A DNA stretch of 62,569 nt. Origin: Clostridiaceae bacterium (GTDB lineage Bacteria > Bacillota > Clostridia > Saccharofermentanales > Saccharofermentanaceae). The notes below the pieces were generated by a model that did not search any database, was not told where the DNA came from, and saw only the letters and a list, made by a program, of their open reading frames with translations. Shown in pieces: positions 6,140-50,208 of the stretch. The number at the start of each line of letters is the position of its first letter. Position 1 is the stretch's first letter. The DNA is taken from the NCBI GenBank assembly GCA_012838315.1, contig DUPM01000157.1, positions 1-62,569 on the forward strand. Reading direction: 5' to 3'. Made by a program: the position numbers and the translations under genes.

Positions 6140-6850
6140 ATGAGCAAGTCAATATACATTGCAGATGATGATGTAAATATTCGAAATCTAGTACAAACCT
6201 TTTTGCAAAAAGAAGGTTATAATGTGTTGTCCTTTCCGGATGGCGAGTCTTTACTGAGAGCATTTAGTTCGCAGCCATCGGATCTTGTCATCCTTGATGT
6301 GATGATGCCTGGTCGAGACGGTTTTCTTATTTGCAGCGATATCCGCTCAATGAGTCAGGTCCCGATCGTCATGCTAACCGCACGTGACAGCGATGCCGAT
6401 TATATTGCGGGACTCTCTCTCGGAAGCGACGATTATTTTACGAAGCCCTTTTCGCCGATGAAGCTTGTATCTAAGGTGAAGGCAATCTTCAGGAGAATGG
6501 ATTCTGCGGAGATGAACCCCTCGGAAACAGATGCTGATGGCCGTTTGATATATGAAGATATCACAATTGTCCCCAAGACCAAGGATGCCTTTGCAGGATC
6601 TCTTGATTTGAAGTTGACGCCCAATGAATATTCGCTTATCACGTATTTGATTATGAATAAGGATCGCGCTGTCTCGCGAACGGAGCTACTCGATAGACTT
6701 TGGGGTTATGAATCATTGGTTGAGACGCGAGTCGCAGACGATACGGTAAAAAGACTAAGAAAAAAAATCGAATCCACGAAAGTCAACATTAAGACTGTTT
6801 GGGGATATGGTTTTAGGCTAACCGCAAAAGAACCTAATGAGCGTGAATAG
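6140..6850 (+). CDS. OmpR/PhoB-family response regulator
   Basis: Cytoplasmic transcription factor activated by phosphorylation. The receiver domain (1-120) has the acidic pair D10/D11, phospho-acceptor D53 in VILDVMMPG, T80 and K102 in FTKPFSP. A winged-helix DNA-binding domain fills about 135-232, with LTPNEYSLITYL, SRTELLDRLWG and the terminal VWGYGFRL. At 236 residues the length is typical. The ATG follows AGAGGAATT. The partner histidine kinase begins 27 bases downstream. The regulated genes cannot be deduced, though the neighbouring GH1 gene and membrane operon are candidates. Confidence 0.95.
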   Translation: MSKSIYIADDDVNIRNLVQTFLQKEGYNVLSFPDGESLLRAFSSQPSDLVILDVMMPGRDGFLICSDIRSMSQVPIVMLTARDSDADYIAGLSLGSDDYFTKPFSPMKLVSKVKAIFRRMDSAEMNPSETDADGRLIYEDITIVPKTKDAFAGSLDLKLTPNEYSLITYLIMNKDRAVSRTELLDRLWGYESLVETRVADDTVKRLRKKIESTKVNIKTVWGYGFRLTAKEPNERE

Positions 6851-6877
6851 CTAAGCGGTATACGGAGCGAATCTGAA

Positions 6878-8356
6878 TTGATTAATAAAAAACGCAGTCT
6901 CAGGCTTGAAATATTTATCGCTTTTCTCATCGTTTTTGTCGTTTCATTTTCGACATTCTTCGTTGCTTTTCGCGTAGTCGTCGATCGATATATTCAACAA
7001 GACTCTAACAACAAAGTCATTGCGGCTCGACGAACTGTGAGAAGTATTTCTCGTTCTTTTCGTGATTCCAACTTGTATTTTCAAAGCACGGTTAACCAGG
7101 AAATTGAATTATCCAAGGTGGTTACCGGAGGCTCAGACGTCAATGTTGCTCTAATCAATGCTTCAGGTTATGTTGAATGGCCTGTGGCTTCTGATGCCTA
7201 CAACAACGGACACAAAGTGGCAAAACTTCTCGAGATTGCAGAAGATCACGGTATGATTCTTGGTGACAATAGTTTGACTAAAGTATCGTCTGAATCTCAC
7301 GATTACATAGTATCCAGTATTTTTGCGCCCTCCCTCAGTTCGATAGAAGCCGCATCCAGCGGAAATTTCTATTTTATATACTTGGATATTTCACCTTATG
7401 TATCTTTTGCAAAAGAGTTAGACGGCATATTATACACCGCTATGACCGCTGCTGTTTTTCTGTCGTTGCTATCTTCTTTTCTCTTATCAGATAATTTAAT
7501 ACGCTCCATTCATAAGCTCATGCAGTTTGCTAGCAAAATCGGTTCAGGTGATTTCAACCTTCGGGATTTGAACATGCAAACTAAAGAACTTGACGCTTTG
7601 GCTAATAACATGAATAAAATGGCATATAAACTATCTCAAGCAGATATGGAGCAAAAGACTTTTTTCCAAAATGCTTCGCACGAACTCCGAACGCCTCTGA
7701 TGTCTATCCAAGGTTATGCGGAAGGTTTGAAGCTTCAGATATTCGACGATCCGGAACCCGCATTTGATGTCATAATTTCAGAATCAAAACGTCTGACTAA
7801 TATGGTCGAAAATCTATTAAGTATTTCTCGTTTAGACCTAGTTAATTCCGGCCTGAAGACAATTCAAAAATCCGGCGTTCATCTGCAAGAACTACTCGAC
7901 TCCGTTATCGAGAAGGTCAAGGGTACTATCTTATTTTCAGACAAAGAAATTTCTCTCTCTGCTCCGAAAGAGGAGATTTATGTTTTCGGGAATGACAGCG
8001 ATTTGTTCCGAGCCTTCGAAAATCTACTGTCTAATGCCATACGACATGCCAATCACCATATAGATGTCAGCGTCGAAGCACAAGGCAGACAGGTTAAGAT
8101 TCTTGTATCCGACGATGGACCCGGAATCTCTGAAGATATAATTGATCGCGTGTTTGATCGTTTTGTACAGGGCGAAGGCGGAAAACATGGGATTGGCTTA
8201 GCTCTTGTTCACGCAATTATCTCAAGCCATGAAGGCTCTGTATTTGCTACCAATCAAAAGAGTCCAAAATCCGGCGCTACGATTACTGTTCAGTTACCTC
8301 AATATTCGACGGATAAACAACAACGAAGATACGATCGCCCCAATACAAATCCCTAA
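6878..8356 (+). CDS. Membrane sensor histidine kinase
   Basis: Signal-transducing kinase partner of the preceding response regulator. Its 492 residues show TM1 (about 10-32), an extracellular sensor region (about 35-180), TM2 (about 184-204), a HAMP-like linker, and a HisKA domain with H268 in FFQNASHELRTPL. The ATPase domain follows, with N-box FENLLSNAIRH, G1 VSDDGPGIS and G2 GKHGIGLALVHAI. Translation starts at TTG 6878, with GGAG 10 bases before it. The gene converges on the 8441-9304 gene, with an A/T-rich hairpin between them. Confidence 0.95.
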   Translation: MINKKRSLRLEIFIAFLIVFVVSFSTFFVAFRVVVDRYIQQDSNNKVIAARRTVRSISRSFRDSNLYFQSTVNQEIELSKVVTGGSDVNVALINASGYVEWPVASDAYNNGHKVAKLLEIAEDHGMILGDNSLTKVSSESHDYIVSSIFAPSLSSIEAASSGNFYFIYLDISPYVSFAKELDGILYTAMTAAVFLSLLSSFLLSDNLIRSIHKLMQFASKIGSGDFNLRDLNMQTKELDALANNMNKMAYKLSQADMEQKTFFQNASHELRTPLMSIQGYAEGLKLQIFDDPEPAFDVIISESKRLTNMVENLLSISRLDLVNSGLKTIQKSGVHLQELLDSVIEKVKGTILFSDKEISLSAPKEEIYVFGNDSDLFRAFENLLSNAIRHANHHIDVSVEAQGRQVKILVSDDGPGISEDIIDRVFDRFVQGEGGKHGIGLALVHAIISSHEGSVFATNQKSPKSGATITVQLPQYSTDKQQRRYDRPNTNP

Positions 8357-8357
8357 T

Positions 8358-8393
8358 CAAAAAACACGGATTAATTTTGGTGTCTGTTTTTTG
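8358..8393. terminator. A/T-rich convergent terminator
   Basis: CAAAAAACA at 8358-8366 pairs with TGTTTTTTG at 8385-8393, between the convergent kinase gene and the 8441-9304 gene. The arms supply a T-run on both strands, so it could serve both, though the stem is weak. Confidence 0.55.
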
Positions 8394-8440
8394 ATTATTT
8401 GTGTAATCTATTGTATGCGCAACGCATAACTTCGAAAAAA

Positions 8441-9304
8441 TTATCCCCTCGTCGCAGAGAGACTTGGATCCGTCGTTTCAAGTTCGTCGCTTGGAGTGTC
8501 CGCAACTGTTGTAGAATTCGAACCATCCATAGTAGTGTTATCCTGATTATCTCCCGCAATAGCCGAAGAAGGAACAGTGTTATCTTCCTGCGCGTTGACT
8601 TCAGGATTCGAAGCATTGGATGCATCCTGAGCCCCTTTGTCTTGTGCCGTAATCATTTCCTCGTCAAAAATTCCCTTTTGCATTTGAATCGGCATGTATA
8701 TTAGTGCGTCGACATTCAAAAAACTATTTTTTCGAACTCCCGAGAAGGGATCGTCGTCAATTAATGCACCCACGTCAAATACACTCATCGAAATAAAATG
8801 CGCTGACAAAAATATCACAACGGAAATGATTATGACTTGAAGTACGAGCATCAGGTTAATGCCCATTTTACCCGCTTCCGATAATAATGAAATAAATCCT
8901 GAAGTCTTCGTCGACAATTGCGATGAGGTCCCGGAAGACATAAGCAAGTCCATCGCCCTAAATGAAATCGAGTTGATTCTCTTATGAACCTCTGCTTTGA
9001 TCGTGCTTTTAGTGAACTCGTCTAGACTTCTGTCTGAAATGACAACGTGATCCGGAACAGGATATTTATCAGACAACGCTCGTACCTTGTCTTCTAAAAT
9101 ATCAGCAAATACGAATACCGGATCTTCATCCGTGTGCACATTTCTCTGATGAAAAGCCTCAACAAATGAATCAATCAAAACCATTTCTGTTCTCGTCGCA
9201 TCTGCTAAAACACGATATGACGATTTATATGCTGACGGAGAATACGTGTCGATAAAAATGTCAATGTTATCTCTGCCCAGTGGCGCATTGCCGGTGTTCA
9301 TCAT
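8441..9304 (-). CDS. Single-pass membrane protein with sigma-region-2-like N-terminus
   Basis: I do not recognise a named family. The 287 residues divide into a cytoplasmic N-terminal part (1-150), one strong membrane helix (about 152-180) and an extracellular tail rich in Asn, Asp, Ser and Thr that looks disordered. Residues about 21-55, with YKSSYRVLADATRTEM and VLIDSFVEAFHQR, resemble the helices of sigma-70 region 2, where an aligned AEDxxQexF pattern would be expected. No region 4 is present, so if related it is degenerate. The ATG at 9304 follows GAGGAGG and overlaps the stop of the preceding gene as ATGA, so it is translationally coupled to the sensor-MFS gene. Confidence 0.6.
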   Translation of the reverse strand: MMNTGNAPLGRDNIDIFIDTYSPSAYKSSYRVLADATRTEMVLIDSFVEAFHQRNVHTDEDPVFVFADILEDKVRALSDKYPVPDHVVISDRSLDEFTKSTIKAEVHKRINSISFRAMDLLMSSGTSSQLSTKTSGFISLLSEAGKMGINLMLVLQVIIISVVIFLSAHFISMSVFDVGALIDDDPFSGVRKNSFLNVDALIYMPIQMQKGIFDEEMITAQDKGAQDASNASNPEVNAQEDNTVPSSAIAGDNQDNTTMDGSNSTTVADTPSDELETTDPSLSATRG

Positions 9305-11325
9305 TGCACCTCCTCGCCGTCTTCAAAAAACGAATGTGCATTTTCCACGGGAGAATCCAAATGGGAATCGTTAGAATAATTGGTCAACTCCGGATGGTTC
9401 GATTCAAGTTCGACATATGGATCAAGTTGATTAGGCTTGTTATTCTTGTTATCAGGGAAATAAATTATATTGACTACTGGGTGAAACAATAGTGCAAAGG
9501 AAACAATTAAAGAAACAATCAGTAGCGGCATTCGAATATTAACTTCAAAGAATAGGACTCCACTGAACAGCACAATTCCGCTCAAAATGCCGACATAAAA
9601 TGCCTTTTCGACGATAAGACGAGACATCGAACGCTTGTCCCTGCGAATAAGCAACTGGTAACCTTCGTGAAGACTGAAGTTATGAAGACCAACAGATATT
9701 GCCAAAAGGATAGTGACAGGAACCAATGTTTTCGCGGTCGGCAGCAGGGCAAATGAAAAATAGGCGACCACTTGAGTAAGCGAAGCTATAGCTATATTCG
9801 GTCCACCTCGGCCGGAAGAAGAAAAGATTATTTTGATAAAGCGCGGAACCACAAATGCAAAAAACGCATACAGCAGATAATAAAACGATAAGGCCGCTAA
9901 CGACAATCCGACTCGCTTGATATAGACGGGAACAAAACCAACCAAAAACGCAAACTGAATACCGAGCGAGACATAAGTGCTAAATAAAAATGATCCGGAA
10001 CGTCTGTTCGTCAAGGCATATAGGAAGCTGGTCAAGTGCAACTGATTCTCCGAAGATGCCGGGCAGTGTTGCACAATAACCATTGATAGCACGGAGACCA
10101 GCAACAGAGACGCTCCACTCAACAACAAAACCGAAGCCAATCCAAATCTTTCAAATATAACACCTGCAATGACGGCACCTACACCGGCACCATATAAACT
10201 AGATGAGAATTGAGATTTGAGTAACGATAAATTGTCATAATCTTGGTGACCGAGCCTTCCGGCATACACACGGTATTCTCGCTGAAAATATAATATCATG
10301 CCTTGAAAAAATGCGATGGGCAACACAAATACGATCAACGCAATGGGATGATTAAACAGTGCGACAACAAATAACATCACAAAGGAGATAATAATCGACA
10401 CTGCCATCGACAACCTCGACGTAAAGCGCTTAAATATGTAGACCCTAATGGAATGTAGGCCAAAAAAACCAATTGCATATAAGAGCAACGCAGAAGATAA
10501 GGCGAGCCATAATAATACCGGTTGTCCGGAAAACCGTGACGAACGAAGTATATAGTTTGAAATGACGAGCGGTATCATGATACAGGACATAGACGAAAAA
10601 AATGCAATCGATCGACAACCATCATGACCGAAGCGAATAATTTTCGGCAAGCGCTTATCATGCCTGCTGAATGCAAGTGATATTAACCGATAAGATTGAA
10701 AATATAGCAACGTTAGAGAAATAGAAATCGCGAATAAAGTGAATATGTAAGATAACGAAAAACCATTGACCGTTCCAGAATAGTCACTTTCAGGGATCAT
10801 GACTTCAAGAACTCCAGCAACAGCGCCCGAAGAAACAACAATCGGAGCAATTGCAACGCGATATACTACACCGTCCTCAGTGCGCATATCCAATCCGATT
10901 TTTTCCAGTTGATACGCTGCTAAATATTCCTTGCCATCGACATCAAGCGTCTCGGGTAACTCTTCGGTATTTATTGCCAACTGGTTATCCTCAGATGAAG
11001 AAAAAACGCGAAGAAATGAATTGTGAGAGTACATATAAATATTCATCTCATAATATTTATCTTCAGCATAAGGGTAGTCCGGAAGTACTTGAGGCATGCC
11101 ATGAGTAATCGGCACTCCAGAAAGCGCGACGGCTGAGGATGCCGAAACTTCTAATAATGCATTGGAGCGCTCTTCCTTGAGCGCAGAAATATATGCATCG
11201 TTCACAACTGAAGACATAACAATGAGCGTAATAAGGCTGACAACAAAACAATACGCCAACTGTATTGACAACGACTTAACGCCGCGTGGCGGTTTCTGGA
11301 GGCTGGAGAGAATAATGTTATTCAA
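9301..11325 (-). CDS. MFS-type membrane protein with extracytoplasmic sensor-like domain
   Basis: The 674-residue protein begins with one membrane helix (about 18-40), then an extracellular region of about 150 residues bounded by a second helix near 205, the layout of a single Cache-type sensor. About twelve further membrane helices follow in a major-facilitator pattern, including FGLASVLLLSGASLLLVSVL, and a polar C-terminal tail of about 45 residues. A transport substrate cannot be named. The start is TTG 11325 because AAGGGAGG lies 8 bases upstream, and an earlier TTG at 11358 has no such site. The gene overlaps the preceding one by 8 bases and the following one by 4. Confidence 0.7.
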   Translation of the reverse strand: MNNIILSSLQKPPRGVKSLSIQLAYCFVVSLITLIVMSSVVNDAYISALKEERSNALLEVSASSAVALSGVPITHGMPQVLPDYPYAEDKYYEMNIYMYSHNSFLRVFSSSEDNQLAINTEELPETLDVDGKEYLAAYQLEKIGLDMRTEDGVVYRVAIAPIVVSSGAVAGVLEVMIPESDYSGTVNGFSLSYIFTLFAISISLTLLYFQSYRLISLAFSRHDKRLPKIIRFGHDGCRSIAFFSSMSCIMIPLVISNYILRSSRFSGQPVLLWLALSSALLLYAIGFFGLHSIRVYIFKRFTSRLSMAVSIIISFVMLFVVALFNHPIALIVFVLPIAFFQGMILYFQREYRVYAGRLGHQDYDNLSLLKSQFSSSLYGAGVGAVIAGVIFERFGLASVLLLSGASLLLVSVLSMVIVQHCPASSENQLHLTSFLYALTNRRSGSFLFSTYVSLGIQFAFLVGFVPVYIKRVGLSLAALSFYYLLYAFFAFVVPRFIKIIFSSSGRGGPNIAIASLTQVVAYFSFALLPTAKTLVPVTILLAISVGLHNFSLHEGYQLLIRRDKRSMSRLIVEKAFYVGILSGIVLFSGVLFFEVNIRMPLLIVSLIVSFALLFHPVVNIIYFPDNKNNKPNQLDPYVELESNHPELTNYSNDSHLDSPVENAHSFFEDGEEVQ

Positions 11326-12007
11326 TACTTGAACCTCCCTTACGATTATTTGTAGCAATTTTGAAGATGACAGGAATGATGTACTGCAACGAAAATAGAA
11401 CCAGGGAAATTAGTATGACGACCAGTACTGTCTTTAATAAGTTCTGCTCAATATTACGTCCATATTGATCGAGCTCAGAAAATTCGCCGTTAAGTTCAAA
11501 CAGGCCTCTCATATTCCCTTGAGAGTCAAAAATCGGTACGAATACACTGCTGGTGTTCTCCTCTTGAAATAGGGATATCGAATAATCCTTTGTGAACCAA
11601 TCTGATACCTGCTTTTTTCTGGCCATCATGCGGTCTGGATTCGTCTCGTACATGACAATCAGTTCTCCGGTAGAGTACGCATACAAACCATAGTCTAAAG
11701 AAGAAAAGGATTCTCGATCTGATTTTTGAATCATCAGTCCGAGAACTGAAGCATATTTTTGTGAAGCCGTGACAGGATCCAAGGCGATCTCATCACCACT
11801 GATAGATAGAGAAACATTCGTCGCAATCGTCTTGAGTTTATATTCATGAATGGCGCGGTATTCCTTTTCAAAACCGAGACGCATGTGATTCACAGCAAAA
11901 GAAACCGCCAGCAGCAATAGAATACAAGCGATCGCTGCCAATACAACGATACGAACAACAAGACCGACATTATTCACTGCCTTATCTGAATGGGTAATAT
12001 GACTCAT
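11318..12007 (-). CDS. Membrane protein with an extracellular Cache-like domain
   Basis: This 229-residue protein has TM1 (about 16-38), an extracellular domain (about 40-185) and TM2 (about 188-210) followed by a short basic tail. The extracellular part has the alternating pattern of a single Cache sensor (YGLYAYSTGELIVMYETNP, then SVFVPIFDSQGNMRGLFELNG). No kinase, HAMP or cyclase output domain is attached. Since its topology mirrors the N-terminus of the coupled MFS fusion, the two may pair. The start is probably ATG 12007; a TTG at 12025 is possible and neither has a strong ribosome binding site. It is the first gene of a three-gene operon. Confidence 0.68.
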   Translation of the reverse strand: MSHITHSDKAVNNVGLVVRIVVLAAIACILLLLAVSFAVNHMRLGFEKEYRAIHEYKLKTIATNVSLSISGDEIALDPVTASQKYASVLGLMIQKSDRESFSSLDYGLYAYSTGELIVMYETNPDRMMARKKQVSDWFTKDYSISLFQEENTSSVFVPIFDSQGNMRGLFELNGEFSELDQYGRNIEQNLLKTVLVVILISLVLFSLQYIIPVIFKIATNNRKGGSSIE

Positions 12008-40617: not shown

Positions 40618-40645
40618 CTAACAAACTTTATACGATGAAAAAAAG

Positions 40646-40672
40646 AACGACCGGGTAACCGGTCGTTTGTTA
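40646..40672 (+). terminator. Terminator of the MraY-like gene
   Basis: AACGACCGG-GTAA-CCGGTCGTT forms a perfect 9-bp stem, followed by a T-rich tail on the plus strand. It also separates the gene from the convergent kinase operon. Confidence 0.88.
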
Positions 40673-40739: not shown

Positions 40740-41111
40740 TCATAAATTACTATCATCGGTCTCAACATCGTCTACTGATGACTCGTACTGAACCGCAGCC
40801 GTATCTGATGACTCTTCTAAAGCATCGTCTTGGTCCGATTCTTTTGAATCGGCATCAGAATCCTCGCTTTGCTTGCTTTTCTCTTGCTTAATGACCTCGC
40901 GAGCTAACAGTTGCATTTGCTTCTGTGCCTCTGTAAGCTTCGAATCAAGTTTTGCGACCTTGCCAAGTTTGGATAGGGGCTCGGAGCGATTGGTGCCGCC
41001 CCCCTTCGCAATTGTTGGGTCAGAAAAATCTTCAGCGACGCGAGAAATCTCTTCGATGTCCGGCACTTTTACTTTTGTTTCAAAATCGTATTTGCGTTTT
41101 CTATTCGGCAT
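40740..41111 (-). CDS. Small acidic coiled-coil-like protein of the kinase-VWA-PP2C operon
   Basis: The 123-residue protein is not recognised. It starts basic (MPNRKRKYDF), has a central predicted coiled coil (about 48-78, KLTEAQKQMQLLAREV) and ends in about 40 residues rich in Asp, Glu and Ser. No membrane helix is present. It is the last gene of the operon, 13 bases after the phosphatase gene, with AAGGAG before its ATG. It might be an adaptor or substrate of the kinase and phosphatase (the tail is rich in Ser); this is inference. Confidence 0.6.
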   Translation of the reverse strand: MPNRKRKYDFETKVKVPDIEEISRVAEDFSDPTIAKGGGTNRSEPLSKLGKVAKLDSKLTEAQKQMQLLAREVIKQEKSKQSEDSDADSKESDQDDALEESSDTAAVQYESSVDDVETDDSNL

Positions 41112-41124
41112 AAAATACTCCTTA

Positions 41125-42285
41125 CTATCTGAAAAAATAATACAAGGCTATTGCAACAGAAACTAATACTATACCGAGTGCACAGAATAAGTATACACGT
41201 TTACCGGCTTTAAATCTCTTATTCTTCGATTCTATTTTAACTGAATTTTCAATGTTCTGACACTCGATACCCACTGCATCAATATCTTCTTTTGCCGGGG
41301 TGGATTCTTTAAAACTATCAATGGTCTCATTTGGGATGTCCATCTCATCGGGGATTTTGTTAGAGTCAACCTGTGCATCATGTGACATGATATCACTGGA
41401 TTTTTTGAATAACTCGCGTGCTAACTTGACGCGAGGTAAAATGTCCATCTGAACATTCTTCATTACGTCTGAAAAATTTATGAGCGGAACAGATTTTTCT
41501 TTGGGCAAAGAATCAAAATCCGGAGATGGAGTGCCAGGAAAATACATGATGCCAATCGTAGCGTCATCAGACAATGAGGATTTTTGAATAATATGTTTGT
41601 CGATTGCTTCTTTGAGTTTGTCATAGCGATTCGCTTCTTGAGGGGATCCCAACTCGGCAAGACGCGCGACCACCGGCAAAACGTGGTAGGTAGATGAATC
41701 AAATACCGATTCAGAAATACCATCTGTCATAAGAACGAACGCGTGGGCATCATCTGTCGTTGTACGTACGATTCGCAGATAGTCTTGGGCATCAGGGAAG
41801 GTGATAAAATACGTGCTTGAAGCATCTTCACCATTTTGCGGGAGTGTGACAGGCACGATCCCCGAAGATGACACCCGTGCAATTAATCCATCACCGATAT
41901 GACCAAATATAACTCTGGAATCCTTAACTGCACAAAACATAAATGTTGCAGCCATCTTGTCAATTGTTTTGAGACTGTTCTCTTTCGCCTTGATTGCCAG
42001 CTCCGACTGAATGGCTGTTACGATGATGCTTCGAACGACGTTTTCTCGAACGTCCATAAAGAAAGCATCAAAATGCTTAGTCATCAATTTAGCAATGGTC
42101 TGAACTGCCGTTAGCGACCCGATTCCCGCATGCGTATAGAAACTTCCACCCGCACCATCCGAAATACACACAACATGAACGTCGTTCTCTGTCATCGCAT
42201 AGCATGCGTCTTCATTAGGCATGTGTTTATCCGTATGCTTTCTGCCCGCAAGTGACAGACAAGTCAGTTCCGGTTTTAAAAACAT
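41125..42285 (-). CDS. Tail-anchored PP2C-type Ser/Thr phosphatase
   Basis: Manganese-dependent protein phosphatase. The 386 residues hold a PP2C domain (about 1-260) with the metal-binding pairs in MPNEDACY and CISDGAGGS, FGHIGDGLIA and TDGISESVF. A Ser/Glu-rich linker (260-350) leads to one membrane helix at the extreme C-terminus (about 364-384), leaving the catalytic domain in the cytoplasm. It follows the VWA gene by 6 bases, its ribosome binding site lying in the end of that gene. It likely reverses phosphorylation by the operon's kinase, as in TerY-P triads. Confidence 0.9.
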   Translation of the reverse strand: MFLKPELTCLSLAGRKHTDKHMPNEDACYAMTENDVHVVCISDGAGGSFYTHAGIGSLTAVQTIAKLMTKHFDAFFMDVRENVVRSIIVTAIQSELAIKAKENSLKTIDKMAATFMFCAVKDSRVIFGHIGDGLIARVSSSGIVPVTLPQNGEDASSTYFITFPDAQDYLRIVRTTTDDAHAFVLMTDGISESVFDSSTYHVLPVVARLAELGSPQEANRYDKLKEAIDKHIIQKSSLSDDATIGIMYFPGTPSPDFDSLPKEKSVPLINFSDVMKNVQMDILPRVKLARELFKKSSDIMSHDAQVDSNKIPDEMDIPNETIDSFKESTPAKEDIDAVGIECQNIENSVKIESKNKRFKAGKRVYLFCALGIVLVSVAIALYYFFR

Positions 42286-42291
42286 GCCACA

Positions 42292-43029
42292 TTACTCCTC
42301 TTCTAAGTACTTGAAAAACTCATCAATGGCTACGGATTTTTTCTTTTCGGTATCGTCCAAAGAATAGAGTGCATCATCTTTCATTCCACTTGAAACAATG
42401 GAAGAACTACTCGAACCTAAAAACTCAAACAGCTTTGAGAACTGTGCCGAGTCAATACATATAGGTTCCGGTCTTTTCACGGATAATCGTTTGAGAAGCG
42501 TGAAATCAATGCCGGTGCCAACACCAATGTTAAAAACGACCAAGCGTCCTGTCGACTCAAGATCATTCGTAGCACCAATCGCCTTTTCCATGTTTTCAAT
42601 CGCATTATCTCCTTGGGGTGCGCCGTCAGTTATAACGACCAACCAGGGTTGATAATACTTAATCCCAAGTTCTTTGTATCCTTCTTTTCGCGCGGCTAAC
42701 AACTCCAATGCGGTTAGCACACCCTCGCCCATCGGCGTCAAACTCGTCGTCGCCTGAATGTGAGGAACCGATGTCTCTTTGCTCAGTCGACCGAAAGGCA
42801 AGAAAATATCGACCGTACCACCAAAAGTTATAATGCATATGTCAGCCGCTGCCCTTGTCTCTTCGTTTTCTCTTATAGAAGAAAAGAAACTCTGCAAGCC
42901 CTCGTTGAGTTGTCGAATTGGATTACCTGCCATCGAACCGCTGACATCTAAGCAAAAGCATATCGGCAAGCGACGACGCGTGCTCTTGCCAAAATCTGAA
43001 GCGTCAATTTGAGTCGATTTCTTTGTCAT
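42292..43029 (-). CDS. VWA-domain protein (TerY-like)
   Basis: The 245-residue protein is a single von Willebrand factor A domain with an intact metal-ion-dependent adhesion site (D28, S30, S32 in LDVSGSM; T98; D135 in VITDGAPQGD). TerY-type VWA proteins are cytosolic scaffolds in tellurium-resistance-linked stress systems. It lacks signal peptide and membrane helices. The ATG at 43029 has GGAGG 6 bases upstream; an in-frame GTG at 43035 overlaps that site. It lies between the kinase and PP2C genes. Confidence 0.92.
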   Translation of the reverse strand: MTKKSTQIDASDFGKSTRRRLPICFCLDVSGSMAGNPIRQLNEGLQSFFSSIRENEETRAAADICIITFGGTVDIFLPFGRLSKETSVPHIQATTSLTPMGEGVLTALELLAARKEGYKELGIKYYQPWLVVITDGAPQGDNAIENMEKAIGATNDLESTGRLVVFNIGVGTGIDFTLLKRLSVKRPEPICIDSAQFSKLFEFLGSSSSSIVSSGMKDDALYSLDDTEKKKSVAIDEFFKYLEEE

Positions 43030-43044
43030 TTTCACCCTCCTAGG

Positions 43045-44844
43045 TCATAATGAGTTTGTAACTACAAACAATAATATCACTAATACTATAAAAACAGAAA
43101 GCAAAAGTATCGTTAAAGGACGCATAAGAAATTCTTTGACGTCCACGGAGTCATTGTCCGCATCGGTAGATTTGTTATTGCTCGCTGAAACATTCGAGTT
43201 GGTTAATGGGGCTTCAGTCTTGCTCTGCGGTGAAAAAACTTTATCCTCAGAACCAATGTATTCTCTCTTCATTCTCTGCGCACGCAAATCAATTCGGGCA
43301 GAAATCATTTCTGAAGACTCTTCGGGCGCATGAATGATTGCTTCTCGAAATGATTTTTTAAATCCTGCTTTATTTTCAATAACAACAATACGGGAAACGT
43401 CCGTAAAGGGGAAAAGGTTGTAGTATTGTTCATCGGCGAATGCGTGCTCCTGAAGTTGCTTTTTATATTCGAGCAACGCATCATACCATTCCGTCGGCTC
43501 ATATCTTATACCATTTGAGAAAGCATTAACAAACATCATTTTTAATCGAACCGGTAATGCATCCCATATTCTGTCATACCCACCAAGAGGAACCATTGAC
43601 TCTTCTGCTTTTTGCATATGATAAGGAAAAGCTCGATCTAACATCTCCTCGCGAAGAGTCTCCTTTCCCAGACGTTGAGCATAAGGATGCTGGCCACAAA
43701 AGAGCAACGAAAATACTAAAATACCGCACGAGTAATCCTCATGAACCGGCTCACGTAAAATGGCCGAAAACGAATAATCCCATAGTTCAGGCGGTGTATA
43801 ATCCTCCGTACCGACCGGGCATGGCATATCCTCAAACTGAACACTGTCCATATCAATGACAAATACATTCTGAGTATCCTTAATCATCATATTCTTCAAT
43901 TGAATGTCCCCAATCAGAACATTGTGAAGATGCAAATAGATGATTTTCTGAAGAATGCTGATTGAAGTGTTGACAACATCCACTCTCTTCCAATCTGGAT
44001 AATGCGCCAATACAGCGTCCGGCCCATCAAAAACAGATCCCAGTGTGCGTCCTTCTGCTGTTGGCATGACAAACCCAACGGGCACCTTATTAAAAGTATA
44101 AAGTAACTTACACGGCCACGCCAATCCCTTCGCGCGAATCGCGGCTTGTCTCATACGCATTAGTTTACGCCATCTAAGGGGGGTAATAACCGCCTTGTGG
44201 TATACCTTTGCAACATAATCCGGATCGCCGGTACGAAAAACAATGCCTTCTGCACCCGTACTTATCTTAGAAGCCAAATATACCGGTTTGCCTTCATCAT
44301 CGTATACCGTATCGCCAACGTTACAATGAATTTCAACATCAAGATACTCGTCCGATCCGGAGACCTTGTGAATAACGTAAGGCGCCTCTTCTTCAAGGCA
44401 CACGTTAAGACTGGAATACATTTTGAAAAAGGTTGCAGATATAACAAAGACCGGCATAGAACCGGAAATGTTTCGATCACGAATACGTTCGAGAACAAAT
44501 GATTTTTTGCCAACAACGAATAGATTCGTCGGATCAGATGCATACTCAGATAGAAATGGAAAAGCCGACAAATGATCCGTCCAAGTCAATAAATCAGCTT
44601 TCTCAACTCGAGCCAATAAATCTCTTAGAGCTCCAAAATTAGCTTTGCCTTCTTGATCAGAAGTCTGGAAAACACTCTCGTGTTGAAAGCGAAAATACGC
44701 GGGAAGAATGAGCATCACCCGATGCGAAATGATTTGCTCGGTAAAAAATGACAGCGATTGCGTCTTGGCCATGACAATCATGGCCGAATAGTCTACAAGA
44801 ACACGCTTTTTGTTAGATAATAATTCGACAATTCTGTTTTTCAT
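43045..44844 (-). CDS. Tail-anchored Ser/Thr kinase-like protein with N-terminal PIN-like domain
   Basis: The 599-residue protein has three parts. Residues 1-150 look like a PIN-type nuclease fold (VLVDYSAMIVMAK at 14-26, later LFVVGKKSFVLERI and VFVISA), though not all its acidic residues are present. Residues 185-455 are a protein-kinase fold with G-loop STGAEGIVFR, lysine K213, catalytic loop D313/N318 in IGDIQLKNMM (the His of HRD is missing), D331 in VIDMDSVQ and PPE at 351-353. Residues about 572-597 form a membrane helix. It is the first gene of the TerY-like operon. Whether it is an active kinase needs testing. Confidence 0.85.
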   Translation of the reverse strand: MKNRIVELLSNKKRVLVDYSAMIVMAKTQSLSFFTEQIISHRVMLILPAYFRFQHESVFQTSDQEGKANFGALRDLLARVEKADLLTWTDHLSAFPFLSEYASDPTNLFVVGKKSFVLERIRDRNISGSMPVFVISATFFKMYSSLNVCLEEEAPYVIHKVSGSDEYLDVEIHCNVGDTVYDDEGKPVYLASKISTGAEGIVFRTGDPDYVAKVYHKAVITPLRWRKLMRMRQAAIRAKGLAWPCKLLYTFNKVPVGFVMPTAEGRTLGSVFDGPDAVLAHYPDWKRVDVVNTSISILQKIIYLHLHNVLIGDIQLKNMMIKDTQNVFVIDMDSVQFEDMPCPVGTEDYTPPELWDYSFSAILREPVHEDYSCGILVFSLLFCGQHPYAQRLGKETLREEMLDRAFPYHMQKAEESMVPLGGYDRIWDALPVRLKMMFVNAFSNGIRYEPTEWYDALLEYKKQLQEHAFADEQYYNLFPFTDVSRIVVIENKAGFKKSFREAIIHAPEESSEMISARIDLRAQRMKREYIGSEDKVFSPQSKTEAPLTNSNVSASNNKSTDADNDSVDVKEFLMRPLTILLLSVFIVLVILLFVVTNSL

Positions 44845-46290: not shown

Positions 46291-48141
46291 CTATTCGATG
46301 CCCACCATCTTCATCAAATATTTCGCATTTGCAGAAATTGATATGCCTTCAGCCAACAAATAATCAAAATGGATACCTTCATTATCGTATTGTTCGGTAA
46401 AGTGATAAAAACGGATAGGCAAATTACCATCGCGATTCAGCTCACACAGCTGGTAGTCATGAGTTGACATCAGTCCGGTCACCCATGACTTGTTCAGGTT
46501 ATTGAGAACAATTTGTGCCCCATCCGTTCTGTCTCTAGAATTTGTCCCGCGAAAGATTTCGTCGATTAAAAATAACAACGGCTCTCCGATTCGCGAAAAC
46601 CGAACAATACGTTCAATACGAACGAGCTCGGCATAAAATGTAGATAACCCCGACTCCAGATTATCCGTGATTCGCATAGACGTCATGATGCGCATAATAG
46701 ACAATTCGAGTTCATCAGCGCAACATATAGTTCCCGCATATGCCAGAACCGCATTTATTCCTACCGTCCGCAAAAGAGTCGTCTTTCCCGACATGTTTGA
46801 ACCGGTAATAATCGCAATACCGCCAGGTAAATTGAAATCGTTTCTCACTTGCTTCGCAATCGGAATCAAAGGGTGTCCCATCTTCTTTGCAGAAAACACG
46901 GGTGCCATCAAGACGTCTTGTGCATCTGGAGAAATAATAGTTGGCATCGGCAACTCAGGATAAATCAATCGCATCATGGAAAGGCTCATCAGCGCCTCCC
47001 ATTCTCCAAGGTATTCAAGATTTTGAAGAAAAAGCGGACCTGATTCTTTAACCCATTTTTGAAGATGGTAATAGCAATAATAATCATATAAAAACAAGGC
47101 GTTAAGTATCAGAAACAGCAGTGGTTGGCTTCTGGCTTGAATAAAGAGACATATATTATGCAACCTAGACAATTGCATGGAAGCTGAAGCATGAAGATCC
47201 GTGCCCTTCAGCTTCGTCTGTAAAAATTTTAAATAATCCGACTGAACATTTAGTTTCTCAATGCATTCGAAAAGTGAGTGATACGCGAATAACTTTGGAT
47301 GCAACCCTGTTATTGATGAGAAGGCATTTTTAAACCGAGAATAGTTCGTCGCGGTGAACACAAGTTGCACCAAAATGAGTATAAACGACACAAAAATGAT
47401 ATTGACCGGTGAAAAGAAAGAAATAGCGGCCGAAATGATTAGCAATGTTGATATCAAAGCATTGATAATTAACCGACTCTTAGGAAATGAATAAGAATTT
47501 GACTCATAATACGTGGCATAGTTTACAAATGAATTTGTTGATTTAATGGTTTTGAATGCTTTGTTACCTAGAGCTTCAAAGGTCTGAACCGATTCATAAT
47601 CCTCAGATAATTCGAGAACAGCATGTTGACGAGACATAATTTTTTCCGAATCCAAACTAGCTGGCTCTCTCGGAGATATATACTCGCACAAAGCTCTTCG
47701 CCCATGTTCTGTTTGGGCTACAGATAACAAATGAAATAGAGATCCATGACCAAACAAATCTAAATCAGAAGCATAATCGTGATTGTCTGCAAGAAAATCC
47801 GATCCGTCATCCGGCAAATTATCGAACTGATGAATCACTCTTGACTTGTATCGATTATGAATGTCCATAAGCGACATTATTTGCTTGCGCTTACGCGATA
47901 TTCGTATATGCAACAGGACTACAAAGCAAAAAACGCAGGAAATCACGCCGGCACCGATTAGTAACCACCACTGCCGATCCGAAAAGAAATACACTGAAAC
48001 TAATAAAATAATAGCGAAGAATAATAGCAACCGAACATGAGACAAGCGATCAAAACCGACAAGTAACTGTTGGTACTCTTTCTGAAGCGCGTCCTCACGT
48101 TCTCTAATAAATTCGTCGCGGGAAGCATTCGATTGGATCAA
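46291..48141 (-). CDS. MutS-like ATPase with membrane helices
   Basis: The 616 residues end with the MutS ATPase domain: Walker A GSNMSGKTTLLRTVGIN (about 446) and Walker B LLFLIDEIFRGTNSRDR (about 520). The N-terminal region has two strong membrane helices (about 37-82) and another pair near 223-262, and lacks the mismatch-recognition domain I (no Phe-x-Glu). It belongs to the MutS-related, membrane-spanning group, whose function is unknown and unlikely to be canonical mismatch repair. The TTG start overlaps the sirtuin stop by 4 bases (TTGA), with GGAGAG upstream. Confidence 0.85.
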   Translation of the reverse strand: MIQSNASRDEFIREREDALQKEYQQLLVGFDRLSHVRLLLFFAIILLVSVYFFSDRQWWLLIGAGVISCVFCFVVLLHIRISRKRKQIMSLMDIHNRYKSRVIHQFDNLPDDGSDFLADNHDYASDLDLFGHGSLFHLLSVAQTEHGRRALCEYISPREPASLDSEKIMSRQHAVLELSEDYESVQTFEALGNKAFKTIKSTNSFVNYATYYESNSYSFPKSRLIINALISTLLIISAAISFFSPVNIIFVSFILILVQLVFTATNYSRFKNAFSSITGLHPKLFAYHSLFECIEKLNVQSDYLKFLQTKLKGTDLHASASMQLSRLHNICLFIQARSQPLLFLILNALFLYDYYCYYHLQKWVKESGPLFLQNLEYLGEWEALMSLSMMRLIYPELPMPTIISPDAQDVLMAPVFSAKKMGHPLIPIAKQVRNDFNLPGGIAIITGSNMSGKTTLLRTVGINAVLAYAGTICCADELELSIMRIMTSMRITDNLESGLSTFYAELVRIERIVRFSRIGEPLLFLIDEIFRGTNSRDRTDGAQIVLNNLNKSWVTGLMSTHDYQLCELNRDGNLPIRFYHFTEQYDNEGIHFDYLLAEGISISANAKYLMKMVGIE

Positions 48142-49010
48142 GTACTCTCTCCTTCATTCAAGTCTTTATTCGATTCCGGTGCCTCTTTAGTATTTTCCAA
48201 AGAAACTTCTCGTGGAGATTCTGAAGAAGCCTTTTTGCGTTTTTTCTTAGGTATAGAGGAATCTAATACCAACCCGATGCTATCATGGATGGTTAGCATG
48301 GCCTGAAGATCCAAATAAGTGGAACTCTTGTTGATAATAACGACGCGGTCATGCGGCAAAAACTGTGCAAATGTAGCAGCAGGATATACGGTCAGTGATG
48401 TACCCCCAATGATTAACAAGTCTGCTTTCTCGATATCTGCGACCGCACGATCAATATTTGCATGGTTTAAATGTTCTTCATACAACACTATGTCCGGTCG
48501 CACCATACCTCCACAAGCAGAGCACTTCGGTATCCCTTCTGACTCAAGAACAAAAGACAAATCGTACTTTGCACCGCAAGATAGGCAATAGTTTCGAAAA
48601 ACTGAACCGTGAAGTTCAATGGTCTTGCGGCTACCGGCGCTTTGATGCAGATTATCTACGTTTTGAGTAATTATCGAACGAAGCTTTCCCGATTTCTCAA
48701 GCCGAACCAACGCCTTATGCGCGCGGTTCGGTTTTGCATTAGGGTAACAAAGCTTCTTTTTATAGAAGTCGAAAAAAATGTCAGGATGCTCAACAAAAAA
48801 AGAATGGCTGATGATATCCACCGGCCGATATTTAAGTCCGCTATCTTGGTTGAAAATGCCTTCTCCGCTTCGGAAATCGGGTATTCCGCTCTCAGTCGAA
48901 ACGCCCGCGCCACCCAAAAAAACAATCTGATTCGACTCATCAATCAATTGCTTGAGTTGCTCAATTTTTTTCTCTTTAGCACCCGAATATCGGTCCTGCC
49001 TTGTCTCCAC
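48138..49010 (-). CDS. Sir2-family NAD-dependent protein deacylase
   Basis: Removes acyl groups from lysines using NAD. The 290 residues include GAGVSTESGIPDFRS, TQNVDNLHQSAG with the catalytic His nearby, and the zinc Cys pairs YCLSCGAKYD and KCSACGG. Residues 1-20 are a charged extension, and the C-terminal 45 residues (rich in Lys, Glu, Ser) are an unusual appendage. The start is GTG 49010 but with a weak ribosome binding site, so it is uncertain. Coupled to the MutS-like gene. Confidence 0.92.
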   Translation of the reverse strand: METRQDRYSGAKEKKIEQLKQLIDESNQIVFLGGAGVSTESGIPDFRSGEGIFNQDSGLKYRPVDIISHSFFVEHPDIFFDFYKKKLCYPNAKPNRAHKALVRLEKSGKLRSIITQNVDNLHQSAGSRKTIELHGSVFRNYCLSCGAKYDLSFVLESEGIPKCSACGGMVRPDIVLYEEHLNHANIDRAVADIEKADLLIIGGTSLTVYPAATFAQFLPHDRVVIINKSSTYLDLQAMLTIHDSIGLVLDSSIPKKKRKKASSESPREVSLENTKEAPESNKDLNEGEST

Positions 49011-49091: not shown

Positions 49092-50108
49092 TTAGCGGTC
49101 CGTAATGCCAATTGGATCATCTTCCGGACAATACGGAAATAGGTCCGACCAATCATGATCACGATCAAAAAATTCATCTGACCTTAACAAATATGTACTG
49201 ATGACCTGATTTCCCGTATCCGGTATAGGATCATCCCAAGTCACATCAACGTGATACCATACCCCATCAATCTTAACTTGATTCCATGCATGAGGTTGAT
49301 ATTTTGCACTTTGATCAAGCGCAGAACCAGATACAATTCGACATTCCACGCCAGAAAGAGTCAGCATGAGCGTGTACGCCTCAGCGTACCCTTGACACTG
49401 ACCCTGATTTTGAATTAATATGCTGTGCGCAGTCGCCAAATAGTCAATTTGATCGCTCGTTTCTGCGTCGTCCTCATAAATCGTATTCATCACTAAATAA
49501 TCATGAACCGCGACAGCAATCTCTCGATCGGACATTTCCGAATTTGTAATGTCCTCAAGAACACTTACCGCCGAATCATATAGTTCCTGATGTAATGCCT
49601 CGTCAAAATCCGGAGTGGGGCTATTTATTACTTTTTGCATAACCTTACCGGTATCATTGTAATCGAGAGCAATCCTGACCGTACAAGGTTCGAGATTATC
49701 ATATTCAATCTGTACCTCTGGATTTTGAAAAGCAGAGTGCAATGCACCATCTTTGATGAGTTCGTCCCAGAATTGATTGAACTCTTCGAAAGAGTTTACC
49801 TTCAAATATAGATCAGGCTGAAAAGCGTATAAAGCCTCTTGGGAGGCATAAAACAAATCTTGCGCGCTACCTACAGGAATGACATCGTCCGAATCGACGG
49901 AAGCCAAACTGCTTTGAAGATGTTTCGGCGTCTGAAAAACTTCCGGAAATTGACTTTCGACTGCATTGACAATATCCCGGAACCCATTACCGGATGAAGA
50001 ACAAGAAGTAACAAATATTGATGCAAGACAAAGTATTAAAGCGGAGAATCGGAGGACTCGACGCTTCAACGAATTCACGGAACAAGACTCAGTTATCTGC
50101 TTATTCAA
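49092..50108 (-). CDS. Transglutaminase-like lipoprotein
   Basis: The 338-residue protein has a lipoprotein signal with lipobox FVTSC (Cys about 37) and a transglutaminase/protease-like domain (about 210-320): Cys in NQGQCQGYAEAYTLML, His in QPHAWNQVKIDG and Asp in YHVDVTWDDPIP. Such secreted domains cleave or cross-link peptides, possibly in the cell wall. The start is TTG 50108 with GGAGG 5 bases upstream; a TTG at 50120 would lie before that site. Its target is not known. Confidence 0.88.
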   Translation of the reverse strand: MNKQITESCSVNSLKRRVLRFSALILCLASIFVTSCSSSGNGFRDIVNAVESQFPEVFQTPKHLQSSLASVDSDDVIPVGSAQDLFYASQEALYAFQPDLYLKVNSFEEFNQFWDELIKDGALHSAFQNPEVQIEYDNLEPCTVRIALDYNDTGKVMQKVINSPTPDFDEALHQELYDSAVSVLEDITNSEMSDREIAVAVHDYLVMNTIYEDDAETSDQIDYLATAHSILIQNQGQCQGYAEAYTLMLTLSGVECRIVSGSALDQSAKYQPHAWNQVKIDGVWYHVDVTWDDPIPDTGNQVISTYLLRSDEFFDRDHDWSDLFPYCPEDDPIGITDR

Positions 50109-50208
50109 TGTCTCCTCCAAAACACGATTTGAAATTTATTAGTTAAGGATATCATATATGTGATATTGAAAAGTGAATATTTAAATAATCTTTCTCAATT
50201 CTGCTTAG

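What the first reader, a model, noticed from the sequence alone, without database searches (positions are those of the whole stretch)
40740..44844. Membrane-tethered TerY-like kinase, VWA and PP2C operon with a small acidic partner
Seen: four minus-strand genes separated by 6-15 bases encode a kinase-like protein, a VWA protein with intact MIDAS, a PP2C phosphatase and a 123-residue acidic coiled-coil protein. Both the kinase and the phosphatase end in a single C-terminal membrane helix, so opposing enzymes would sit on the inner membrane face. Established: comparative work on Ter systems describes TerY-P triads of VWA, PP2C and kinase linked to stress. Inference: this is a membrane-tethered variant with the acidic protein as adaptor or substrate, and it lacks the TerC/TerD genes in this window.
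Basis: partly seen in the sequence, partly recalled or inferred. Interest (0 to 1): 0.85.

Follow-up and report, generated by a model that had tools for sequence, protein, structure and literature searches.

The report
PIN-kinase, VWA, phosphatase operon
A four-gene bacterial signalling operon (kinase, VWA protein, phosphatase and a disordered acidic protein), conserved throughout the Saccharofermentanaceae, appears to be a settled and remodelled version of a mobile gene module, in which a former RNA-cutting (PIN) domain joined to the kinase has lost its cutting residues.

Summary
In detail: four intact minus-strand genes 9, 6 and 13 nt apart. Kinase, VWA and phosphatase keep their active-site residues, and the kinase and phosphatase end in a C-terminal membrane helix. 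The kinase is in 74 of 75 sampled genomes of the family (Saccharofermentanaceae), and the gene order holds in essentially all loci.

The filing 'membrane-tethered TerY-P variant' is only partly right. Kinase and VWA trees place the operon on the E. coli YegI/YegL side, with TerY-P as outgroup. YegI is already reported to be a membrane-bound kinase dephosphorylated by PphC, so tethering is not the novelty. TerD is absent from 77 of 78 family genomes.

- Kinase residues 1-155 form a PIN-like domain (pLDDT 89; PIN structures rank first, Z about 9). Only 1 of 4 PIN acids is kept.
- Its nearest relatives are sporadic, often plasmid-borne PIN-kinase/VWA/PP2C modules that keep all four acids.
- The acidic protein was found only in this family. 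It has a conserved N-terminal motif, and most relatives also have a conserved C-terminal tail.

Best reading: a domesticated, membrane-tethered phospho-switch with a non-catalytic PIN-like sensor and a disordered adaptor or substrate. Output unknown. New variant of a known kind.

The parts
43045..44844 (-). Kinase gene (599 aa): N-terminal PIN-like domain, YegI-type Ser/Thr kinase domain, disordered linker, C-terminal TM helix
44380..44844 (-). PIN-like domain of the kinase (residues 1-155); only D18 of the four PIN acids is kept, with conserved K/R52, H55, R120
   Evidence: AF2 pLDDT 89; PDB PIN structures rank first; sister proteins have intact PIN at the same place; profile-profile E 0.004; residue counts
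43405..44325 (-). Protein kinase domain (residues 174-480), catalytic residues K213, D313, N318, D331 invariant
43051..43131 (-). C-terminal TM helix of the kinase (residues 572-598)
   Evidence: hydropathy; AF2 helix
42292..43035 (-). VWA protein (YegL-like, 247 aa), intact MIDAS
41125..42285 (-). PP2C-type phosphatase (386 aa), metal-binding Asp residues intact, C-terminal TM helix
41140..41196 (-). TM helix of the PP2C (residues 364-382)
40740..41111 (-). Acidic, largely disordered fourth protein (123 aa, pI 4.5), found only in this family in the genomes searched
41025..41093 (-). Family-wide N-terminal motif of the fourth protein (residues 7-29, KYxxxxxVxxPDxxEIxxxAxDFS)
40881..40961 (-). 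Second conserved stretch of the fourth protein, helical (residues about 51-77, dN 0.07)
40645..40668 (-). Terminator-like hairpin with T-run after the fourth gene (works on both strands by pattern)

Best explanation
The operon is a chromosomally fixed member of a YegI-type kinase/VWA/PP2C triad clade whose sporadic, often mobile sisters carry an intact PIN (RNase-type) domain fused to the kinase. In the Saccharofermentanaceae the PIN-like domain has lost three of its four catalytic acids, the enzymes have gained C-terminal membrane attachment, and a disordered acidic fourth protein has been added. Most likely mechanism (inferred): the PIN-like domain senses a signal (a nucleic acid or a protein) and controls the kinase. 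The YegL-like VWA uses its metal (MIDAS) site to bind an acidic stretch of the fourth protein and present it to the kinase and phosphatase on the inner membrane face. The phosphorylation state of the fourth protein (candidate sites in its N-terminal SDFS/DFT motif and, in relatives, its C-terminal DETxDDFSEFL tail) then carries the signal.
For: Shown: the kinase, including its N-terminal domain, in 74 of 75 listed family genomes, one copy each; conserved gene order; active-site residues invariant. PIN-like fold: confident model; PIN structures (Utp24, SMG6, AF0591, Nmd4) fill the top of the VIA list (Z up to 9.0) and most of the top Foldseek rows. Sister kinases with Pfam PIN_4 and four invariant acids in plasmids and scattered genomes, followed by VWA and PP2C. 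Trees: f1 plus PIN-mobile VWAs as one clade at 97*; kinases 84/67, or 98/94* with one PIN-less row included. Fourth protein: hits in 21 of 21 listed f1 genomes and none listed in other families, N-motif under purifying selection. PP2C TM in 87 of 88. MIDAS domains bind extended peptides (PMC7159879). YegI is membrane-bound and dephosphorylated by PphC (PMC13232886).
Against: The PIN relationship rests on structure, position and a weak profile match (hhalign E 0.004, probability 8%; no PIN hit in Pfam for any member). The f1 + PIN-mobile kinase branch is not starred (84/67). No physical interaction, phosphorylation or localisation is shown. The window's fourth protein lacks the C-terminal tail seen in most relatives, so the tail cannot be essential here. 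Most family kinases lack a TM helix; their basic-aromatic tails are only a possible membrane anchor.
Confidence: 0.5

Rival explanations
1. It is a TerY-P triad proper: a metal- or stress-linked or anti-phage switch that happens to be membrane-tethered.
For: Same three enzyme classes in an adjacent set; TerY-P triads are described as metal-sensing switches and as anti-phage systems (PMC11090510, PMC10889362).
Against: Kinase profile scores: YegI 101, mobile PIN-kinases 197-250, TerY-P kinases 12-45 bits. In both trees TerY-P is the outgroup. No TerD in the genome and in only 1 of 78 family genomes. PADLOC gives only weak hits to kinase-with-OB-fold and PP2C models (STK_OB 13 bits, PP2C 15.6 bits, no VWA hit). 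Near-universal vertical presence is unlike a defence gene.
Confidence: 0.1
2. An active defence module: the PIN-like domain still cuts RNA on phage infection and the kinase/phosphatase pair controls it.
For: Sister modules have intact PIN acids and sit on plasmids or beside restriction genes.
Against: In 41 of 41 family members only one PIN acid remains. Single copy, conserved neighbours (argS, LysA-like, MutS-like) and 74 of 75 occupancy argue for a core function; no viral contig or annotated phage carries a close relative.
Confidence: 0.08
3. The N-terminal domain is another Rossmann-like fold that only resembles PIN, and the operon is simply a YegI/PphC/YegL triad with an unrelated sensor.
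For: No sequence hit to PIN; Foldseek E only 1e-3 and TM about 0.45; the profile match to sister PINs is weak.
Against: PIN-type structures take the top 25 VIA rows; sister proteins with unmistakable PIN have the domain in the same position; the alignment is collinear over the whole domain with D18 on the first PIN acid; unrelated controls score 0.26.
Confidence: 0.2
4. The fourth protein is a structural spacer or an independent envelope or cell-division protein that is only co-transcribed, and the triad acts on other substrates.
For: No known domain; the long middle is low-complexity charged sequence of variable length.
Against: It directly follows the PP2C gene in every locus long enough to judge, except L154, which lacks the PP2C and the fourth gene too, and it was found only where the triad is.
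Confidence: 0.2

Closest known systems
Mobile PIN-kinase/VWA/PP2C modules (Lysinibacillus capsici pFN9B, Paenarthrobacter sp. AT5 plasmid, Fusobacterium vincentii and several unnamed Firmicutes); no name for this module found in the papers searched
   Same: Gene order kinase-VWA-PP2C; N-terminal PIN plus kinase in one protein; closest in the kinase and VWA trees
   Different: They keep all four PIN acids, several have zinc-binding C-terminal domains, no TM in the kinase, often an HTH gene upstream, no acidic fourth protein; scattered and often mobile
E. coli YegI / PphC (YegK) / YegL
   Same: Membrane-bound Ser/Thr kinase, PP2C that dephosphorylates it, VWA; matches of 101, 44 and 121 bits to the window family's profiles
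   Different: Order VWA-PP2C-kinase, helix-hairpin-helix after mid-protein TM segments, no PIN domain, no fourth protein of this kind, PphC (253 aa) ends with the catalytic domain
TerY-P triads (ter operons; anti-phage TerY-P)
   Same: VWA, PP2C and Ser/Thr kinase side by side
   Different: Distant by sequence (12-45 bits for the kinase), zinc ribbon or OB-fold on the kinase, linked to ter or restriction genes, no TM by hydropathy in the kinases tested
GAP1-N2 systems with kinase/PP2C/vWA (Kaur et al. 2020, PMC7159879)
   Same: Kinase (sometimes with TM helices), PP2C and standalone vWA genes together
   Different: Associated with GAP1-N2 GTPases in actinobacteria; no such gene seen next to this operon
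PrkC/Stk1 PASTA kinase with Stp1
   Same: Membrane Ser/Thr kinase and PP2C phosphatase
   Different: Extracellular PASTA sensor; a separate PASTA kinase is present in 38 of 38 family genomes

Membership tests
TerY-P triad | Adjacent VWA, PP2C and Ser/Thr kinase genes | tested here: met
TerY-P triad | Kinase fused at its C-terminus to a zinc ribbon (or OB-fold) | tested here: not met
   No such Pfam hit; residues 490-574 are mostly predicted disordered, then a TM helix
TerY-P triad | Kinase and VWA group with TerY-P sequences in a tree | tested here: not met
   TerY-P rows form a separate starred group
TerY-P triad | Linkage to ter genes (TerD) | tested here: not met
   TerD absent in own genome and in 77 of 78 family genomes; TerC not searched
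YegI/PphC/YegL triad | YegI-type kinase domain with PP2C and YegL-type VWA | tested here: met
   Profile scores of 101, 44 and 121 bits and trees
YegI/PphC/YegL triad | Membrane segment in the kinase | tested here: met
   C-terminal TM in the window kinase; only 16 of 92 distinct relatives
YegI/PphC/YegL triad | Helix-hairpin-helix C-terminal region as in E. coli YegI | tested here: not met
   No HHH hit in the window kinase; weak HHH_5 in YegI
PIN-kinase/VWA/PP2C clade | PIN fold N-terminal to the kinase in one protein | tested here: met
   Predicted fold, PIN structures rank first; weak profile support
PIN-kinase/VWA/PP2C clade | Four PIN catalytic acids | tested here: not met
   Only the first is kept in 41 of 41 family members
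PIN-kinase/VWA/PP2C clade | Gene order kinase-VWA-PP2C and tree placement | tested here: met
   (kinase branch 84/67, VWA 97*)
Anti-phage defence system | Protection against phage | not testable with these tools
   No assay; family-wide single-copy presence argues against

The most novel reading that the evidence does not exclude
A mobile module with a PIN nuclease under kinase/phosphatase/VWA control was captured once by an ancestor of the Saccharofermentanaceae and turned into a core membrane signalling system: the nuclease became a non-catalytic sensor and a new disordered protein with conserved ends became the dedicated phospho-relay substrate held by the VWA metal site.
Probability: 0.35. 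Interest if true: 0.72.

Novelty: new variant of a known kind. Interest (0 to 1): 0.52.

Why it matters
Kinase/PP2C/VWA triads are widespread, and to my knowledge what most of them sense or modify is unknown. This lineage offers a rare handle: a core, single-copy triad with a dedicated, co-inherited fourth protein as the obvious candidate substrate or adaptor, and a fused PIN-like domain whose intact form in mobile sisters suggests that the ancestral output or input was RNA. It would also be a clear case of a mobile conflict-type module becoming a housekeeping regulator.

Tried and rejected
(1) Single-protein scan of genome contigs found nothing; the alignment-based scan worked. (2) Sequence profiles of the N-domain against PDB and Pfam gave no PIN match; the fold had to be predicted. 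(3) Foldseek on the full kinase model lists only kinases, so the N-domain was folded alone. (4) Close relatives in viral contigs or annotated phages: none. (5) Papers on a PIN-kinase/VWA/PP2C system: none found; the primary YegI and Ter papers are not held, so their content is cited through PMC13232886, PMC11090510 and PMC7159879. (6) PADLOC gives only generic kinase hits and weak PP2C hits for the triad proteins. (7) Two same-order kinases (L071, L072) that match the window kinase are ordinary TerY-P-like kinases, not members of this clade.
Full report
OBSERVATION. Pfam finds a protein kinase, a VWA and a PP2C domain; nothing matches the fourth protein. In 39-41 family members the MIDAS residues of the VWA, the metal-binding aspartates of the PP2C and the kinase residues K213, D313, N318 and D331 are invariant, so the enzymes look active. 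Hydropathy supports a C-terminal TM helix in kinase and phosphatase. Against the same-genus relative, synonymous change is near or at saturation while dN is low in the kinase domain (0.078), VWA (0.036) and PP2C domain (0.068). In the fourth protein the N-terminal motif (0.097) and a helical stretch (0.068) are constrained, and the acidic tail is free (0.73). A terminator-like hairpin follows the fourth gene.

CONSERVATION. The kinase, over nearly its full length, is present once in 74 of 75 listed genomes of the window's family. In the rest of the order only two genomes match, through the kinase domain alone, and these two kinases are TerY-P-like. The missing genome is a MAG of 87% completeness that also lacks the VWA. 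Named hits are Saccharofermentans, 'Mageeibacillus' MAGs and related rumen, gut and digester bacteria, that is, Saccharofermentanaceae by my reading of these names. Gene order kinase-VWA-PP2C-fourth holds in every locus long enough to judge, with one exception, L154, where the PP2C and fourth gene are missing next to the VWA. Neighbouring genes (MutS-family ATPase, LysA-like decarboxylase, glycosyltransferase, argS) are often conserved too, which fits vertical inheritance.

THE OVERLOOKED DOMAIN. Kinase residues 1-155 were predicted alone (as 1-172) with high confidence (pLDDT 89, pTM 0.83). Foldseek's top hits are mostly PIN domains at borderline E-values. The VIA second look puts PIN-type domains in all of the first 25 rows, Z 9.0 to 7.2 over 106-123 residues (Utp24, SMG6, AF0591, Nmd4, VapC). 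Z values of 7 to 9 alone could be a common arrangement, so I looked for independent support. A genome from another family (G332) has a 789-aa relative whose N-terminus is a plain PIN domain (Pfam PIN_4 at its cut-off), followed by a YegI-type kinase, two VWAs and a PP2C. Similar modules occur in other Firmicutes genomes, in Fusobacterium vincentii, on a Lysinibacillus plasmid and on a conjugative Paenarthrobacter plasmid, where RefSeq itself names the kinase 'PIN domain-containing protein'. Their PIN domains share four invariant acids (D30, E66, D111, D133 of L169). Profile-profile comparison aligns the two sets over the whole domain, with the first acid on D18 of the window, but weakly (E 0.004 against 0.26 for two unrelated controls). 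In the family the other three acids are replaced (conserved K/R52 and H55, S/G at 115). I conclude that the domain is PIN-like and very probably not a nuclease; the first half is well supported, the second is inference from residues.

WHERE IT BELONGS. The kinase-domain profile scores mobile PIN-kinases 197-250, a PIN-less Photobacterium plasmid kinase 160, YegI-type kinases 101-118 and TerY-P kinases 12-45 bits. In the kinase tree the family and the PIN-mobile set are each one clade and sit together (84/67, not starred; 98/94 starred with the Photobacterium row), then YegI, with TerY-P as outgroup. The VWA tree agrees (97, starred). TerD is absent from the genome and from 77 of 78 family genomes. 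A PASTA kinase is present in 38 of 38, so this is a second, separate kinase system. E. coli YegI is reported as membrane-bound and autophosphorylating, and PphC dephosphorylates it (PMC13232886). TerY-P triads are described as metal-sensing switches and as anti-phage systems (PMC11090510 and PMC10889362). Hence 'works like a TerY-P or YegI triad' stands, 'is a TerY-P' does not, and membrane tethering is already a YegI property.

WHAT IS LINEAGE-SPECIFIC. First, the mobile sister kinases have no TM helix, and the one mobile PP2C scanned has weak winged-helix-like matches at its C-terminus. In the family 87 of 88 PP2Cs have a C-terminal TM. Kinases end either in a TM (16 of 92, including the window) or in a basic-aromatic tail such as KKKFFGLF (48 of 76 match a crude motif, against a mean of 1.9 in shuffled tails), perhaps a second way to touch the membrane. 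Second, the fourth protein was found only in this family (21 of 21 listed f1 genomes, none listed elsewhere). All members share the N-terminal motif KYxxxxxVxxPDxxEIxxAAsDFs. Most relatives also end in an acidic-aromatic tail such as DEETxDDFSEFL, with a charged low-complexity middle, but the window's genus and two others have a short form without that tail.

MECHANISM. Shown: anatomy, co-inheritance, intact active sites. Established elsewhere: MIDAS-type VWA domains bind extended peptides (PMC7159879). Inferred: the VWA holds the acidic fourth protein and presents it to a kinase and a phosphatase on the membrane, and the PIN-like domain is the sensor. Nothing here shows a physical interaction, a phosphorylation site or an output. 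The defence role of sister modules is a guess from their mobility and neighbours (type I restriction genes, transposases).

VERDICT. A real, strongly conserved operon, correctly seen but filed under the wrong relative, with a more interesting architecture than reported. New variant of a known kind; interest 0.52.

Noticed in passing
L031-L070, L089-L168 (kinase C-termini): Kinase C-termini are bimodal: TM helix in 16 of 92, otherwise a basic-aromatic tail (KKKFFGLF, GLFGKFKKGLFN, GLFSRFKKK); its charge is opposite to the acidic-aromatic C-tail of the fourth protein (DDFSEFL).
   Followed up: partly
L169:5529-6518, L215:6587-7495, L222:6480-7343: Mobile PIN-kinase modules are preceded by an HTH protein of about 290-330 aa; by eye the C-terminal part of the L169 copy also looks PIN-like.
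   Followed up: partly
L219 (G761) 6801-11328: Two PIN-kinase genes in tandem in one genome, one with an acid replaced in the ITQDxDL motif (ITQNGDL), possibly an early step of the same PIN decay.
   Followed up: no
L154: Only locus inspected with ample downstream sequence where the PP2C and fourth gene are missing next to the VWA; a response regulator follows instead.
   Followed up: no
window 46291-48141 (-): MutS-domain-V ATPase with predicted TM helices, next to the operon in many relatives; a Sir2-type gene (48138-49010) and a transglutaminase-like gene (49092-50120) lie further upstream.
   Followed up: partly
L215 (NZ_CP084075.1): A 2.1-Mb Fusobacterium vincentii record labelled as a plasmid looks by its size and neighbouring genes like the chromosome.
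   Followed up: no
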